A DNA stretch of 64,000 nucleotides. Source: Aerophototrophica crusticola (GTDB lineage Bacteria; Pseudomonadota; Alphaproteobacteria; Azospirillales; Azospirillaceae). Shown here in pieces: positions 55,774 to 64,000 of the stretch (the stretch's first letter is position 1; each line of letters begins with the position of its first letter). The position numbers and the translations under genes are program-made. The stretch is taken from NCBI GenBank assembly GCA_001939945.1, contig MOEB01000013.1:1-64000 (forward strand). The letters are read 5' to 3'. Under the pieces are notes generated by a model that saw only the letters and a list, made by a program, of their open reading frames with translations, was not told the DNA's origin and ran no database searches.

Positions 55774-57042
55774 TCACGGCTCCGGCCAGGGTTCCTCCGC
55801 CGGGATGACCGGCCGGTCCGGCAGCCGGCGCAGCACCTTGTCGATGTAATCGGACAGGGCGGCTGCCGTGCCCACGTCGCGCCCCTGCGCCTCCGACAGG
55901 TACCAGCGGTGCTCCAGCACCTGGAAGTACAGCTCCGGGTCGTCCAGCTTGCCGCGCAAATCTTCCGGCACGGCGTCCAGCAGGGGGGCGTAGATCTCGT
56001 GCAGCCAGCGGTGCGCGGCCGCCCCCTCCGGCAGGGGCCGGCCCTCCGCCAGTTCCAGCCGCGCCTTGAAGCGGCGGATGTCGTTCAGCAACTGGCGGCT
56101 CTGGTTCTCCTCCGCGTCCAGCCCGGTCAGCTGGTGCAGGCGCCGCTTGTGGTGCCCTGCCTCCACCACCTTGGGCCGCATGACCAGCCGCAGCCCCTCC
56201 CGCCGGCCGGGGACCCGGTTGGGCAGGTCGTCCGCCGTGACCAGGTCCAACTCCTCCACGTCGAAGCCGAAATCGTTCAGGGCCTTGATGCGGGTCTGCA
56301 CCCGGTATTGCTCCTCCGGCCCGAACACCTCGTCCCGCGTCAGCTCATGCCACAGCCTGTGGTACCGGACCTCCATCTCCTCCGCCACGGCCAGGGGGTC
56401 GAAGCCGTCGGGCAGGCCGGGGCCGGCGGCCAGGTCCATCAGCTCCCCCGCCATGTTCAGCCGCGCCAGCTCCACGTCATAGGCGCGCATGCCGTCGGAC
56501 ATCTCCGGGTGCAGCTCCCCCGTCTCCGCGTCCACCAGATAGGCCGCCAAGCGGCCGGCGTCGCGGCGGAACAGGGTGTTGGACAGGGAGCAGTCGCCCC
56601 AGTAGAAGCCGGCGATGTGCAACCGGATCAGCAGGTCCACCAGCGCGTCCAGCAGCTTGTCCCCGCGGGCCAGCGGGTCGCCCCCCTCGAACAGCACGCG
56701 ATAGGGCATGGCCCGCTCCAGGTAGCGGGTGACCAGGATGGTCATCAGGGGCCGCCCCTCCGGGCTGATCCGGCCCGTCACCAGCCCCACCGCCTCCACC
56801 GACGGCAAGCCGCGGTCCCGCAGGGTGCGGAGCAGCTCATACTCCCGCAGCGCCACCCGCTCCGGCACCTCCTTCAGGGCGAAGACCGTGTCGCCGTCGC
56901 CATGGACGAAGCGCACCACGTTGCGGCTGATGCCCCGGGGCATCTGCACCAGCAGCTCATCCGGCCAGGTCTCCAGCGGCAGTTCCCAGGGCAGGCCCAC
57001 GCCCAGGGCGAAGCTGTCGGCGGCGGTCAGCTTGATGCGCAT
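55774..57042 (-). CDS. DUF4032 protein, kinase-like fold
   Basis: 422 residues. The first 200 look like a protein- or lipopolysaccharide-kinase fold: Lys57 in VFALKEVP, Glu in ALREYELL, then IRLHIAGFYWGDCSLSNTLF (Asp150 and Asn155 as a catalytic loop) and YLVDAETGEL (Asp171 as metal ligand). The C-terminal half is the DUF4032 domain with an HHKRRLHQLTGL stretch. Substrate unknown. It is upstream of malQ's far end and near the phosphorylase-kinase-like gene, which suggests a link to glycogen. Confidence 0.85.
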   Translation of the reverse strand: MRIKLTAADSFALGVGLPWELPLETWPDELLVQMPRGISRNVVRFVHGDGDTVFALKEVPERVALREYELLRTLRDRGLPSVEAVGLVTGRISPEGRPLMTILVTRYLERAMPYRVLFEGGDPLARGDKLLDALVDLLIRLHIAGFYWGDCSLSNTLFRRDAGRLAAYLVDAETGELHPEMSDGMRAYDVELARLNMAGELMDLAAGPGLPDGFDPLAVAEEMEVRYHRLWHELTRDEVFGPEEQYRVQTRIKALNDFGFDVEELDLVTADDLPNRVPGRREGLRLVMRPKVVEAGHHKRRLHQLTGLDAEENQSRQLLNDIRRFKARLELAEGRPLPEGAAAHRWLHEIYAPLLDAVPEDLRGKLDDPELYFQVLEHRWYLSEAQGRDVGTAAALSDYIDKVLRRLPDRPVIPAEEPWPEP

Positions 57043-57120
57043 TGCGGGTCATCCAGCACGGAGGGCGGGCGCTTGCTCGGGCGGACCCGGCATGGGGTGG
57101 CGTCGAACACTACCCAACCG

Positions 57121-57251
57121 TCCCCTCCCCCTGAGGGGGAGGGACAGGGAGAGGGGTTAGGACCTTTCCGGAAAGGGAAGCCTGTGAAAAGGCGCCTGCT
57201 GTCCTGGTCTCACCACCCCTCTCCCTGTCCCTCTCCCCCTGGGAGAGGGGA
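57121..57251. repeat. Inverted-repeat element, CCCTCTCCCTGTCCCT arms
   Basis: Left arm GGGGGAGGGACAGGGAGAGG and right arm CCTCTCCCTGTCCCTCTCCC are inverted copies separated by about 55 bp. A CCTTTCCGGAAAGG palindrome lies between them. It sits between the malQ stop and the DUF4032 start. This motif type is common between genes in many GC-rich bacteria. Confidence 0.7.
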
Positions 57252-57293
57252 CGCGACCGCATCGTCCAGCCTTGTCCCCGGCGAGGTTCGGCC

Positions 57294-58823
<1,530 letters not shown>

Positions 58824-59060
58824 CGGGATCGTCTGTCAGGGGTGGGCCGGTTACGGGCGGTATGTCGGGATCGTTGCGGCGAACGCAAGGTTGCGGCGGC
58901 TGCAATTTTGTAACGATACTACGGTGGGTCCCCCACCGGTCAAATCACAAACGGTGGACACGGGCCCGACCGGGGCGGGGGTCTGCTTTCCCTGGCCGGA
59001 GCGTGTGGCCGGCAGCTACCGCCAATGCGCTGCGGCCTTGCCCCGGGCTTGCGTGATCCG

Positions 59061-59080
59061 GTAACGCTGTTACAGTGTTA
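59061..59080. promoter_or_regulatory. Operator-like inverted repeat GTAACGCTGTTAC
   Basis: GTAAC-GCT-GTTAC is perfect and lies inside a larger imperfect palindrome TAACGCTGTTACAGTGTTA. A related half site, TTGTAACGATAC, is at about 58907-58918. It resembles LacI/GntR-type operators and lies between the divergent malQ and phosphorylase-kinase-alpha-like genes. No regulator gene is nearby. Confidence 0.4.
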
Positions 59081-59210
59081 GGCCGGTTGGGCGTTCGTGG
59101 CGGTACCGCCGTGCCCGGCCCCGGCGCGACGCCAACGGACCACCGCCAACGGACCACCCTGGGCACCGCCCACGAGGACCATTCCCGGCCCCTGCCAAGG
59201 CGCATCCCCC

Positions 59211-62200
59211 ATGCCTCCCTCGCTCCTGCCGCTGGCCGGCCCGGTCGGGTCCGACCCCGCCAAGGCCGCCCTCGACCGACTGCACGACCATGTGGCGAAG
59301 GTGATCCTGTCCCGGCAGCACCCGGTGACCGGGCTGCTGCCGGCCAGCACGGCGGTGACGGTGCATGGCAACTACACCCACGCCTGGGTGCGGGACAATG
59401 TCTACAGCATCATCGGCCCCTGGGCCCTGGCCCTGGCCTATCGCCGCCGCGGCGATTCCGCCGCCCGGGCGCGCCTCTTGGAGCAGAGCGTGGTCAAGAC
59501 CATGCGCGGCCTGCTCCAGGCCATGATGAAGCAGGCCGCGAAGGTGGAGCGGTTCAAGCACACCCAGGACCCCCTGGACAGCCTGCACGCCATCTATTCG
59601 GCCAGCACGGGCGAGGCGGTGGCCCCCGACGACGGCTGGGGCCATCTGCAGGTGGACGCCACCTCCCTGTTCCTGCTGATGCTGGCGCAGATGACCCGGT
59701 CGGGCCTGTCGCTGGTCTATACGATGGACGAGGTGGCCTTCGTCCAGAACCTGGTCCACTACATCGGCCCGGCCTACCGCATCGCCGACTACGGCATGTG
59801 GGAGCGGGGGCGGAAGATCAATGACGGGGCGGTGGAGCTGAACGCCAGCTCCATCGGCATGGCCAAGGCCGCGCTGGAGGCGCTCCAGGGCCTGGACCTG
59901 TTCGGGGAGGACGGGGGCCGCGTCGCCGTCGTCCACGCCGTGCCGGATGAGATCGCCCGCGCCCGGGCGACGCTGGAGGCGCTGCTGCCCCGCGAGTCCG
60001 GCTCGAAGGAGGTGGACGCCGCAGTCCTGTCCGTCATCGGCTGGCCCGCCTTCGCGGTGGAGGACCCCGCCGTCCTGGCCCGCACGCGGCGGGAGATCGT
60101 GGAGAAGCTGGAAGGCCCCTGGGGCGCCAAGCGCTTCCTGCGCGATGGCCACCAGACCGCCCTGGAGGACCACAGCCGCTTGCACTATGAGGCGGGGGAG
60201 CTGGAACGCTTCCGCGGCATCGAGTCCGAATGGCCGCTGTTCTTCACCTACCAGTACGTCACCGCCCTGATGCTGTGCGACCGGGCCACGGCCACCTCCT
60301 ACCGGGCGAAGCTGGACGGGCTGCTGGTGGAGCGTTACGGCGAGGCCCTGCTGCCCGAGCTGTACCTGGTCCCGGCCGAGTTGGCGGAAGCCGAGCGTGC
60401 CGCCCCCGGCAGCCAGCCCCGCGTGCCCAACGAGAACGTGCCCCTGCTCTGGGCGCAGAGCCTGTACGTGCTGGGCCTGCTGCTGGAGGAAGGGCTGCTT
60501 TCCCCCGGCGACGTGGACCCGCTGGGCCGGCGGGACCGGGTGGGCCTGAAGCCGCCCGTGCCCCTGCGGCTGGTGGTGCTGGCGGAAGATGAGGGGGTGC
60601 GCATGGCCCTGCGCCAGCGGGGCATACAGGCCCAGACCCTGGCCCAGGCGGGCGGGGCCATCCATGTCTGCCATGCGGATGTGCTGGGCCGGGCCCTGTC
60701 GTCCCTGGGCGCCTGCCCGGCCCTGGGCCTGACCGGCCGGCCGCCGCGGCGGCTGGGCAGCCTGGTCACGGCCAACGGCTTCCGCCTGTCCGGCCAGCCT
60801 ACCGTCTTCGTCCCGTCCTTCGTGGATGAGGCGGACGGTTTCTATTTCACCCTCGACCCCTGCTTCGTGGGGGAGCGGTTGCTGGCCGAGGTGGCCTATG
60901 TCAACCGGAACTGGACCTATGGCCGCCCGCCGCTGATGGTGCTGCCGGTGACCCGCTCCATGGCCGGGGCGCCGGCCTTCGACACCCTGGCCCAGACCCT
61001 GGCGGACCTGCTGGCCGGCCGGGTGCCCGACCTGGCCGTGCGGGGCGGGGAGCTGGGGGAAAGCTTCGCCGCCACCCGGGTGGTGTCCCTGGACGGGGCC
61101 GCCCCCGGCGTGCCCATGGGCCCCGCCGCCGGTCGCGGGCCCGCCAGCCCCGGCCCGGCCGAGTTGGACCGCCTGTCCCTGGCAGAGGCCGGCGCGGAGG
61201 GCTGGGACGATGACCTCTACCGCGCCGCGGCGCAGGTGGGCCGCTGGGACCTGGTGCGCCGCGCCGCCGCCCGGCTGGGCCGCCATGACGAGCGGTTGCA
61301 GGACGCGGTGAAGGAACTGGTGGTGCGGCAGAAGCGGGTGCTGCTCGGCCCGCCCGGCGACCCCAGCCTGGCCATCGACCGGCCCATGGACAACGCCGCC
61401 ATCACCGCCCGCCTGTCCGCCGCGGCCGGCGGTGACCCGGCCCTCGCCATGCTGCATGAGGAGGTGCTGCTGTTCTGCGGCACCCTGGTGAAGGGCAGCC
61501 CCGACCTGTTCGCCCATGTGCTGACCGTGCGGCCGGTGGATCTGGCCGGCCTGCTGGTGCGCGGCCTGATGCGGGAACGGGGGCTGGACCTCGCCGCCGC
61601 CCGACTGCGGCTGGAGCAGGAAAGCCCCCATGCCGTGCTGACCCGCCTGCGCCGGCTGGTCAGCGCCTGCCCCGGCATGACGGGGGAGTTCTGCCTGCCC
61701 GTCCTGTCCCGCAGCATCCTGTCGGACCCGGCGGACGCCCCGCCCGGCTTCGGCCTGGACGCCCAGGACGGCGCCTGGGCCGCCCACGCGCTGGCCACGG
61801 GCGGTGACTGGTGGGCTTGGCGCGACGTGACCGGCACCCTGTTGCCGGTACCGGAAGCCTTCTTCGCCCGGGTCTGGGACGTGCTGGAACATTGCGAGGC
61901 CCTGGCCCTGGCCGACCCGGGCAATCCCGCCCACCGGCTGGACAGCACCCTGCTGCGCGCCGACCGCACCCCGGCGGAACGGGACTTCGCCCGCGAGGTG
62001 GAATCCCGCCTGGACCGCATCGGCAGCCCGGAATACCGGCAGTTGACGGTAGAGGCCCTGTGGGCCGTGTCGGAACTGCTCCGCGCCCGGCCCGACCTGG
62101 CCGTGGCCGGCACGCTCGCCACCGACGACCTGCTGGCGGCGGCCGTGCGCCGCCACTGGCAGGCCCTGGCCCCGGATGGATCGGACCTGCCGGCAGAGGC

Positions 62201-62306
62201 CTGGCAGCGCTTCTACGCCCTGTCCCCGGCCCGTGTGGCCGAACACGTGGCCGCCGCCTTCCTGTCCCGCGCCGCCGCGATGCCCAGGGTGGGGCGGGCG
62301 GCGTAA
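59211..62306 (+). CDS. GH15-like protein similar to phosphorylase kinase alpha/beta subunits
   Basis: 1031 residues from ATG 59211. The (alpha/alpha)6 N-terminal domain carries HAWVRDNVYSIIGPW (57-71), LLEQSVVKTMRGLLQAMMKQ, TQDPLDSLHAIYSA, WGHLQVDATSLFLLMLAQMT (143-162), ADYGMWERG (192-200) and NDGAVELNASSIGMAKAALE. Each block closely matches eukaryotic phosphorylase b kinase regulatory subunits, whose N-terminus is a GH15 glucoamylase fold. The C-terminal 500 residues also follow that layout. Whether it binds or cuts glucans is unknown. Near malQ and DUF4032. Confidence 0.9.
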   Translation: MPPSLLPLAGPVGSDPAKAALDRLHDHVAKVILSRQHPVTGLLPASTAVTVHGNYTHAWVRDNVYSIIGPWALALAYRRRGDSAARARLLEQSVVKTMRGLLQAMMKQAAKVERFKHTQDPLDSLHAIYSASTGEAVAPDDGWGHLQVDATSLFLLMLAQMTRSGLSLVYTMDEVAFVQNLVHYIGPAYRIADYGMWERGRKINDGAVELNASSIGMAKAALEALQGLDLFGEDGGRVAVVHAVPDEIARARATLEALLPRESGSKEVDAAVLSVIGWPAFAVEDPAVLARTRREIVEKLEGPWGAKRFLRDGHQTALEDHSRLHYEAGELERFRGIESEWPLFFTYQYVTALMLCDRATATSYRAKLDGLLVERYGEALLPELYLVPAELAEAERAAPGSQPRVPNENVPLLWAQSLYVLGLLLEEGLLSPGDVDPLGRRDRVGLKPPVPLRLVVLAEDEGVRMALRQRGIQAQTLAQAGGAIHVCHADVLGRALSSLGACPALGLTGRPPRRLGSLVTANGFRLSGQPTVFVPSFVDEADGFYFTLDPCFVGERLLAEVAYVNRNWTYGRPPLMVLPVTRSMAGAPAFDTLAQTLADLLAGRVPDLAVRGGELGESFAATRVVSLDGAAPGVPMGPAAGRGPASPGPAELDRLSLAEAGAEGWDDDLYRAAAQVGRWDLVRRAAARLGRHDERLQDAVKELVVRQKRVLLGPPGDPSLAIDRPMDNAAITARLSAAAGGDPALAMLHEEVLLFCGTLVKGSPDLFAHVLTVRPVDLAGLLVRGLMRERGLDLAAARLRLEQESPHAVLTRLRRLVSACPGMTGEFCLPVLSRSILSDPADAPPGFGLDAQDGAWAAHALATGGDWWAWRDVTGTLLPVPEAFFARVWDVLEHCEALALADPGNPAHRLDSTLLRADRTPAERDFAREVESRLDRIGSPEYRQLTVEALWAVSELLRARPDLAVAGTLATDDLLAAAVRRHWQALAPDGSDLPAEAWQRFYALSPARVAEHVAAAFLSRAAAMPRVGRAA

Positions 62307-62993: not shown

Positions 62994-64000
62994 ATGACCG
63001 ACCTGTTCTCCCCCCCGCCCGCCGGCCCCGGCGGCAAAGGCCCCGCCCCGGCGTACCCCGCCCCGGCCCACCTGCCCTACCTGCAGGGCCTGAACCCCAT
63101 GCAGCGCGCGGCGGTGGAGGCGCTGGACGGCCCCGTCCTGGTGCTGGCGGGGGCCGGCACCGGCAAGACCCGGGTGCTGACCACCCGGCTGGCCCATTTG
63201 CTGCTGACCCGCCGGGCCAACCCCTGGCAGGTGCTCACCGTCACCTTCACCAACAAGGCCGCGCGGGAGATGCGCGACCGGGTGGACAATTTGCTAGGCG
63301 GCCAGTCGGAGGGCTGGTGGATGGGCACCTTCCACGCCCTCGCCGCCCGCATCCTGCGCCGCCATGCGGAGCTGGTGGGCCTGAAGCCCAACTTCACCAT
63401 CCTGGACACGGACGACCAGATCCGCCTGCTGAAGCAGATCCTGGAGGCGGAGAACATCGATTCGAAGAAGTGGCCCGCCCGGGTCATCCTGAACGCCATC
63501 GAGCGCTGGAAGGACCGCGCCCTGACGCCTGACCGGCTGAAGCGGGAGGACACGGGCGACGTGGCCAACGGCAAGCTGCTGGACATCTACCGCCAGTACC
63601 AGGACCGCCTGCGCACCCTGAACGCCTGCGACTTCGGCGACCTGCTGCTGCACAACATCACCCTGTTCCAGACCCACGACGACGTGCTGAAGGAGTACCA
63701 GAACCGCTTCCGCTACATCCTGGTGGACGAGTACCAGGACACCAACGTGGGGCAGTATCTGTGGCTCCGCCTTCTGGCCCAAGCGCACAAGAACATCTGC
63801 TGCGTGGGCGACGACGACCAGTGCGTCGCCGCCGGGACCCCGGTCACCCTGGCAGATGGTTCCACCCGGCCGGTGGAGCAGGTGCGGGAGGGGGACTTGG
63901 TCCTTTCCGCCCAGGGCGGCGGCCGGTTCGGGCCGTCCCGCGTGCTGCGGGTCCACGCCAAGCGGCATGATGGCCCCCTGGTGCGGGTGACGCTGGAGGA
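62994..64000 (+). CDS. UvrD/PcrA/Rep-type DNA helicase, N-terminal part, interrupted by an intein (runs off right edge)
   Basis: The visible 335 residues start MTDLFSPPPAGPGGKGPAPA. Motif Q/N region LNPMQRAAVEAL, Walker A GAGTGKT (53-59), motif Ia TVTFTNKAAREMRDR, FHALAARILRRHAE, and motif II DEYQDTN (245-251) are clear. Motif III begins ICCVGDDDQ at 268-276 but then, instead of SIYxxRGA, continues as an intein from Cys277. The helicase unwinds DNA in excision and mismatch repair. The C-extein is outside the window. Confidence 0.93.
   Translation, partial: MTDLFSPPPAGPGGKGPAPAYPAPAHLPYLQGLNPMQRAAVEALDGPVLVLAGAGTGKTRVLTTRLAHLLLTRRANPWQVLTVTFTNKAAREMRDRVDNLLGGQSEGWWMGTFHALAARILRRHAELVGLKPNFTILDTDDQIRLLKQILEAENIDSKKWPARVILNAIERWKDRALTPDRLKREDTGDVANGKLLDIYRQYQDRLRTLNACDFGDLLLHNITLFQTHDDVLKEYQNRFRYILVDEYQDTNVGQYLWLRLLAQAHKNICCVGDDDQCVAAGTPVTLADGSTRPVEQVREGDLVLSAQGGGRFGPSRVLRVHAKRHDGPLVRVTLE
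63822..64000 (+). other. Intein N-terminal splicing segment in the helicase
   Basis: From Cys277 the protein reads CVAAGTPVTLADGSTRPVEQ then VREGDLVLSAQ. Cys1, G-x-x-V/I, the ADGS-xxPVEQV-x-x-GD-xV segment are Hint-domain block A. The following VRVTLEE is like the start of block B, whose TxxH is just outside. The insertion point is VGDDDQ|S, the nucleotide-contacting motif III, a typical intein site. Splicing would need the C-terminal HN and +1 Ser beyond the window. Confidence 0.85.

What the first reader, a model, noticed from the sequence alone, without database searches (positions are those of the whole stretch)
55774..62306. Possible bacterial phosphorylase-kinase-like system: DUF4032 kinase fold, MalQ, and a PhK alpha-like GH15 protein
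Seen: the 59211-62306 protein has long uninterrupted stretches that match the regulatory alpha/beta subunits of eukaryotic phosphorylase kinase (WVRDNVYSIIG, WGHLQVDATSLFLLMLAQMT, ELNASSIGMAKAALEAL). Nearby, the 55774-57042 DUF4032 protein has residues placed like a protein kinase (Lys57, Asp150/Asn155, Asp171). Between them is malQ, a glycogen/maltodextrin enzyme. Known: in eukaryotes the PhK alpha/beta subunits control a kinase that activates glycogen phosphorylase. Inference: these three genes may be a bacterial module in which a glucan-sensing GH15-like subunit controls a kinase-like partner. I am not aware of a described bacterial system of this kind, though GH15-type PhK homologues are known in cyanobacteria and other bacteria.
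Basis: partly seen in the sequence, partly recalled or inferred. Interest (0 to 1): 0.78.

Follow-up and report, generated by a model that had tools for sequence, protein, structure and literature searches.

The report
Bacterial phosphorylase-kinase-like protein beside malQ
A bacterium carries a full-length relative of the big regulatory subunits of animal phosphorylase kinase, but across bacteria this protein travels with sugar-breakdown genes rather than with a kinase partner, so it is probably a sugar-cutting enzyme related to the protein from which the animal regulator evolved.

Summary
59211-62306 (+) encodes a full-length phosphorylase kinase (PhK) alpha/beta homologue: profile E=0 to human PhK-alpha, and a predicted fold matching it over 933 residues (Z 49). 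55774-57042 (-) encodes a DUF4032 protein with an intact kinase signature. malQ lies between them. The "bacterial PhK module" is not supported as a general system. In 59 Azospirillaceae genomes PhK-like occurs in 11 and DUF4032 in 4, together only here (p=0.57). Of 46 PhK-bearing genomes from other groups, 2 have DUF4032. Both are Saccharospirillaceae, where the genes share a cluster in 10 of 10 genomes carrying both, but 9 more have DUF4032 without PhK. DUF4032 follows malQ and the sugar ABC ATPase UgpC/MsmK. PhK-like follows glucokinase (directly adjacent in 29 of 91 loci), malQ, glgB/glgX and Entner-Doudoroff genes. At least five PhK-bearing genomes lack a detectable glycogen phosphorylase. 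Both GH15 catalytic glutamates are invariant in 104 of 104 bacterial sequences; human PhK-beta has lost one. Best reading: a cytoplasmic GH15-type glucosidase with PhK architecture that releases glucose for glucokinase; DUF4032 is a separate glucan-cluster kinase-like protein. A facultative complex where both co-occur is not excluded.

The parts
59211..62306 (+). PhK alpha/beta-like protein (1031 aa; GH15 domain + D2-D5 incl. KPBB_C)
59211..60500 (+). GH15 (glucoamylase-like) domain, about residues 1-430; no signal peptide apparent in the sequence
   Evidence: aligns to Kribbella isomaltose glucohydrolase 5z3a (Z 28.6) over model residues 1-430
59802..59804 (+). Glu198, predicted GH15 general acid (human PhK alpha Glu185)
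   Evidence: invariant in 104/104 bacterial sequences
60357..60359 (+). Glu383, predicted GH15 general base (human PhK alpha Glu371; Lys in human beta)
61599..62261 (+). KPBB_C domain (residues 797-1017; D4-D5 region of PhK)
   Evidence: E 3.3e-43; residues 865-1022 match human alpha 1052-1212
57294..58823 (-). malQ, GH77 4-alpha-glucanotransferase
   Evidence: flanks PhK-like divergently in all genus loci with enough sequence and in G013
55774..57042 (-). DUF4032 protein: N-terminal Kdo/APH-type kinase signature, C-terminal DUF4032 domain
56872..56874 (-). Lys57 of DUF4032 protein (kinase VAIK-type lysine)
   Evidence: 22/22
56593..56595 (-). Asp150 of DUF4032 protein (catalytic loop WGDxSLSN, with Asn155)
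   Evidence: 22/22
56530..56532 (-). Asp171 of DUF4032 protein (DFG-equivalent VDAE)
   Evidence: 22/22
58824..59210 (.). 387-bp divergent malQ / PhK-like intergenic region; one weak sigma-70-like site on the - strand at 58943-58916
57119..57253 (.). 39-nt inverted repeat pair (90% complementary) between malQ and DUF4032; REP-like, only copy in the window

Best explanation
The 59211-62306 product is a cytoplasmic bacterial member of the PhK alpha/beta family that most likely works as a GH15-type exo-glucosidase on glycogen- or maltodextrin-derived glucans (perhaps short or alpha-1,6 products), releasing glucose that glucokinase captures. Its D2-D5 region probably serves oligomerisation or scaffolding. 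The DUF4032 protein is an independent, probably active kinase-fold protein belonging to malQ and UgpC/MsmK alpha-glucan clusters; its substrate is unknown. The two share a neighbourhood because both are glucan-use genes, not because they form an obligate PhK-like holoenzyme. Shown: homology, full-length fold match, invariant catalytic pair, gene neighbourhoods, co-occurrence counts, absence of detectable glycogen phosphorylase in some carriers. Inferred: hydrolytic activity, substrate, independence of the two proteins.
For: Glu198/Glu383 and the GH15 -1 subsite Arg61/Asp62/Trp197 are invariant in bacteria, while human beta has lost Arg and the base Glu (the scan pattern used contains Arg61/Asp62 but not the two Glu). 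Glucokinase (Pfam E 4.9e-12 on the N-terminal 74 residues of a family representative) lies directly next to PhK-like on the same strand in 29 of 91 loci, in several lineages and on either side. Entner-Doudoroff operons zwf-pgl-edd-eda with PhK and glk occur in Campylobacterota and Saccharospirillum (gene names by sequence reading and clustering). glgB/glgX/malQ operons with PhK occur in G343, G200 and G216. PhK-bearing genomes without any PF00343 phosphorylase match: G343, G216, G244 (listed 100% complete), G487, G516. Methanotrophs recapture glycogen-derived free glucose by glucokinase (PMC6406325, PMC8062543). DUF4032 distribution is independent of PhK.
Against: Human PhK alpha keeps the same catalytic pair yet showed no activity on maltose, isomaltose or glycogen (PMC10978961). 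The loop holding Glu198 is predicted with low confidence. No activity has been measured for any bacterial member that I found. In 10 of 10 Saccharospirillaceae genomes carrying both, PhK and DUF4032 are in one cluster. Most PhK-bearing genomes do have glycogen phosphorylase.
Confidence: 0.55

Rival explanations
1. One reading: the PhK-like protein senses glucan and controls DUF4032 as its kinase subunit, at least in genomes that have both.
For: DUF4032 has an invariant kinase signature. The genes are neighbours here and in one cluster in 10/10 Saccharospirillaceae genomes with both.
Against: PhK without DUF4032 in 10/11 Azospirillaceae carriers and 44/46 others. DUF4032 without PhK in 3/4 Azospirillaceae, in 9/19 Saccharospirillaceae, and no PhK gene among the neighbours in the Actinomycetota plasmid loci. 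No association by Fisher test. DUF4032 has no PhK-gamma-like autoinhibitory or calmodulin-binding tail in its recognised domains.
Confidence: 0.08
2. The bacterial PhK-like protein is a catalytically dead regulatory scaffold (sugar sensor) controlling another glucan enzyme such as MalQ, GlgB or GlgP, without a dedicated kinase.
For: Full D1-D5 architecture is kept and human alpha is inactive despite intact catalytic residues. Recurrent malQ adjacency.
Against: Complete invariance of the catalytic pair and the glucokinase/Entner-Doudoroff operons fit glucose release better. GlgP is absent in several carriers.
Confidence: 0.27
3. It regulates glycogen phosphorylase through some other Hanks-type kinase encoded elsewhere, as in animals.
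For: All 11 genus genomes have a phosphorylase, and its N-terminus carries a Ser/Thr at the Ser14 position.
Against: Phosphorylase is undetected in at least five carriers. The Ser/Thr is also present in PhK-negative relatives and absent in PhK-positive methanotrophs. No CaaX motif in any bacterial member.
Confidence: 0.04

Closest known systems
Phosphorylase kinase alpha subunit (human PHKA1; PDB 8jfk, 8jfl)
   Same: Full-length homology (profile E=0; about 36% identity over 933 structurally aligned residues), D1-D5 architecture, intact GH15 catalytic pair
   Different: No CaaX end; no gamma or calmodulin partner in the neighbourhood; linked to glucose-catabolic genes; occurs in genomes without detectable glycogen phosphorylase
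Phosphorylase kinase beta subunit (human PHKB)
   Same: Same architecture (Z 36-40)
   Different: Beta has lost the catalytic base (Lys) and the -1 Arg (Gln); the bacterial protein keeps both
GH15 isomaltose glucohydrolase of Kribbella flavida (5z3a) and GH15 glucoamylases
   Same: D1 fold (Z 28.6 and about 22-26) and general acid/base positions (family facts from PMC12446779)
   Different: Those lack the PhK-type D2-D5 part, and sequence search of the PDB with the bacterial profile finds only PhK subunits as real hits
DUF4032 family (PF13224) and Kdo/WaaP, APH kinases (PF06293, PF01636)
   Same: P0001 is a full member; 20/20 homologues match Kdo and 12/20 match APH
   Different: No paper in the searched library names DUF4032; it is linked to malQ and UgpC/MsmK, not to lipopolysaccharide genes

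Membership tests
PhK alpha/beta protein family (homology) | N-terminal GH15 domain plus C-terminal KPBB_C | tested here: met
PhK alpha/beta protein family (homology) | Full-length D1-D5 fold | tested here: met
   pTM 0.89; Z 49 over 933 residues to 8jfk_A
Phosphorylase kinase holoenzyme subunit | C-terminal CaaX farnesylation motif | tested here: not met
   none of 104 bacterial proteins; P0003 ends ...VGRAA
Phosphorylase kinase holoenzyme subunit | Dedicated kinase partner encoded with it | tested here: not met
   DUF4032 absent from 44/46 carriers; few kinase-like motifs among neighbours (the regex has limited sensitivity); Hanks kinases elsewhere in the genome not searched
Phosphorylase kinase holoenzyme subunit | Glycogen phosphorylase as target | tested here: inconclusive
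   Present in this genome but undetected in at least five other carriers
GH15 glucoside hydrolase | General acid and base Glu conserved | tested here: met
   104/104
GH15 glucoside hydrolase | Hydrolytic activity | not testable with these tools
   needs purified protein
Secreted glucoamylase | Signal peptide | tested here: not met
   No hydrophobic leader in P0003 by inspection of the sequence; a separate GH15 protein with a leader lies on C203
DUF4032 kinase-like family | PF13224 domain and catalytic Lys/Asp/Asn/Asp | tested here: met
DUF4032 kinase-like family | Phosphotransfer activity | not testable with these tools
   structure model failed (pLDDT 43); needs assay

The most novel reading that the evidence does not exclude
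In lineages that keep both genes around malQ (this genome and Saccharospirillaceae), the PhK-like protein binds glucan and switches the DUF4032 kinase, a bacterial analogue of phosphorylase kinase with an unrelated catalytic subunit acting on maltodextrin uptake (UgpC/MsmK) or MalQ.
Probability: 0.07. Interest if true: 0.88.

Novelty: new variant of a known kind. Interest (0 to 1): 0.55.

Why it matters
The role of the glucoamylase-like domains of animal phosphorylase kinase is an acknowledged open question (PMC10978961). A widespread bacterial family with the same full-length fold, an invariant active site, glucokinase-linked operons and occurrence without glycogen phosphorylase gives a simple system in which to test whether PhK alpha/beta began as a glucan hydrolase. 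It also offers a candidate for an unnamed enzyme that could supply glycogen-derived glucose in methanotrophs. Separately, DUF4032 emerges as an uncharacterised kinase-fold family tied to malQ and sugar ABC ATPases in Pseudomonadota and Actinomycetota.

Tried and rejected
1) DUF4032 fold prediction: only 3 sequences were eligible for the alignment, pLDDT 43, not used. A profile search of the PDB gave only weak HopBF1 hits (E 0.04). 2) GlgP N-terminal Ser/Thr at the Ser14 position in the genus: it occurs in PhK-negative relatives and not in PhK-positive methanotrophs, so it is treated as coincidence; for many genomes the anchor motif was not found. 3) DUF4032 hits in f47 genomes and in Deinococcota are weak or partial and were not counted as true members. 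4) Origin of human PhK: in the tree human alpha and beta fall outside the bacteria, but branches are long and the root is a midpoint, so no claim is made. 5) No defence-system match. 6) Literature: no described bacterial PhK-like system or DUF4032 paper found; Pallen 2003 is not held.

Full report
Observation. The 1031-aa protein is a full-length PhK alpha/beta homologue: GH15 plus KPBB_C by Pfam, phmmer E 5.6e-179 to human alpha and 1.2e-133 to beta, and with a 44-sequence profile E=0 to alpha and 3e-270 to beta, with no glucoamylase in the list. An AlphaFold2 model (pLDDT 83.7, pTM 0.89) aligns to human PhK alpha over 933 residues at Z 49 and to beta at Z 36-40; its first 430 residues align to Kribbella isomaltose glucohydrolase at Z 28.6. 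The 422-aa protein carries PF13224 and a Kdo/WaaP kinase match. Its Lys57, Asp150, Asn155 and Asp171 are invariant in 22 homologues, all 20 scanned homologues match the Kdo family and 12 match APH.

Is there a module? Co-occurrence was tested four ways. (i) Among 59 Azospirillaceae genomes, PhK-like is in 11 and DUF4032 in 4; only this genome has both (Fisher p 0.57). Within the genus PhK-like is in 10 of 11 genomes, and the one without it, G028, has DUF4032. (ii) In 398 Pseudomonadota genomes, PhK-like is in 8 and convincing DUF4032 only in this genome. (iii) Of 46 PhK-bearing genomes from other groups (Cyanobacteriota, Methylococcales, Campylobacterota, Deinococcota and others; loci), 2 have DUF4032. 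(iv) Those two are Saccharospirillaceae, so that family was examined: 10 of 22 genomes have both, 1 has PhK only, 9 have DUF4032 only and 2 have neither (p 0.5). In all ten with both, the genes lie on one strand in one cluster, glk-(eda)-PhK-(malQ)-msmK-DUF4032, and most of the genomes without PhK keep a similar cluster minus PhK. So the two genes share a neighbourhood in two distant families, which is real support for a common pathway, but neither needs the other.

What DUF4032 follows. It sits directly downstream of malQ in 4/4 Azospirillaceae loci, directly downstream of the sugar ABC ATPase UgpC/MsmK in 16/19 Saccharospirillaceae loci, and next to or near UgpC in Arthrobacter (twice) and Actinomyces plasmid records, though not in the Streptomyces or Nonomuraea loci. 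Its substrate is unknown.

What PhK-like follows. In the genus and in G013 it is divergent from malQ wherever the contig is long enough. Over 91 loci, glucokinase is in 30 neighbourhoods, 29 directly adjacent, always on the same strand, in Methylococcales, Campylobacterota and other Gammaproteobacteria, on either side. Sulfuricurvum and an uncultured Campylobacterales have PhK-glk with zwf-pgl-edd-eda, and Saccharospirillum has the same set (these names rest on reading the sequences, only glucokinase was run against Pfam). G343 has rpiR-glgB-glgX-malQ-PhK, and G200/G216 have PhK-glgB-glgX. No PF00343 phosphorylase was found in G343, G216 or G244 (each listed 100% complete), nor in G487 or G516, so regulating that enzyme cannot be its general role.

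Active site. Glu198 and Glu383 equal human alpha Glu185 and Glu371, reported as the intact catalytic pair (PMC10978961). They are invariant in 104/104 bacterial sequences, as are Trp197 and Arg308; Arg61 and Asp62 are invariant where aligned. Human beta has Gln for Arg61 and Lys for Glu383. Arg61/Asp62 were part of the search pattern, so only the Glu pair is unbiased evidence. No bacterial member ends in CaaX.

Mechanism. The best-supported reading is a cytoplasmic GH15-type exo-glucosidase that feeds glucokinase, with PhK-type D2-D5 as a structural or oligomerisation platform. In methanotrophs glycogen-derived free glucose is known to be recaptured by glucokinase (PMC6406325, PMC8062543), and PhK-like is glk's neighbour there. 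The weak point is that human alpha, with the same catalytic pair, was inactive; a sugar-sensing pseudo-enzyme is the main rival.

Novelty. Bacterial members of the Pfam families exist, but the literature searched describes neither their function nor DUF4032. The window is one instance of a widespread family, unusual in having both genes flank malQ.

Noticed in passing
62994-64000 (continues to G000:C35 about 66500; locus L253:95-3601): UvrD/PcrA-type helicase gene with an in-frame intein inserted at GDDDQ^CVAAGTPV...ANGIVTHN^SIYGWRGA.
   Followed up: yes
57119-57253: 39-nt inverted-repeat pair (90% complementary) between malQ and DUF4032; looks like a REP doublet; the gap between the two genes is 251 bp here but 4-135 bp in relatives.
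   Followed up: partly
L179-L195, L198-L200: DUF4032 is linked to the sugar ABC ATPase UgpC/MsmK across Saccharospirillaceae and Actinomycetota, a lead to its function.
   Followed up: partly
L188:8877-10103, L198, L200: DUF4032 appears split into two ORFs in G507 and in two Arthrobacter plasmid copies; frameshift or sequencing error not resolved.
   Followed up: no
L201-L212: GlgP of this genus has a Ser/Thr at the exact position of muscle phosphorylase Ser14, also in PhK-negative relatives.
   Followed up: partly
L032:1541-3697 (G000:C203): The same genome has a second GH15 protein that starts with a hydrophobic leader, so it is probably exported.
   Followed up: no
L033, L034, L168-L178: KPBB_C scores are far higher in Saccharospirillaceae and one gammaproteobacterial genus (E 1e-69 to 1e-91) than in Azospirillaceae (1e-39 to 1e-44), suggesting fast divergence of the C-terminal region in the window's lineage.
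   Followed up: no
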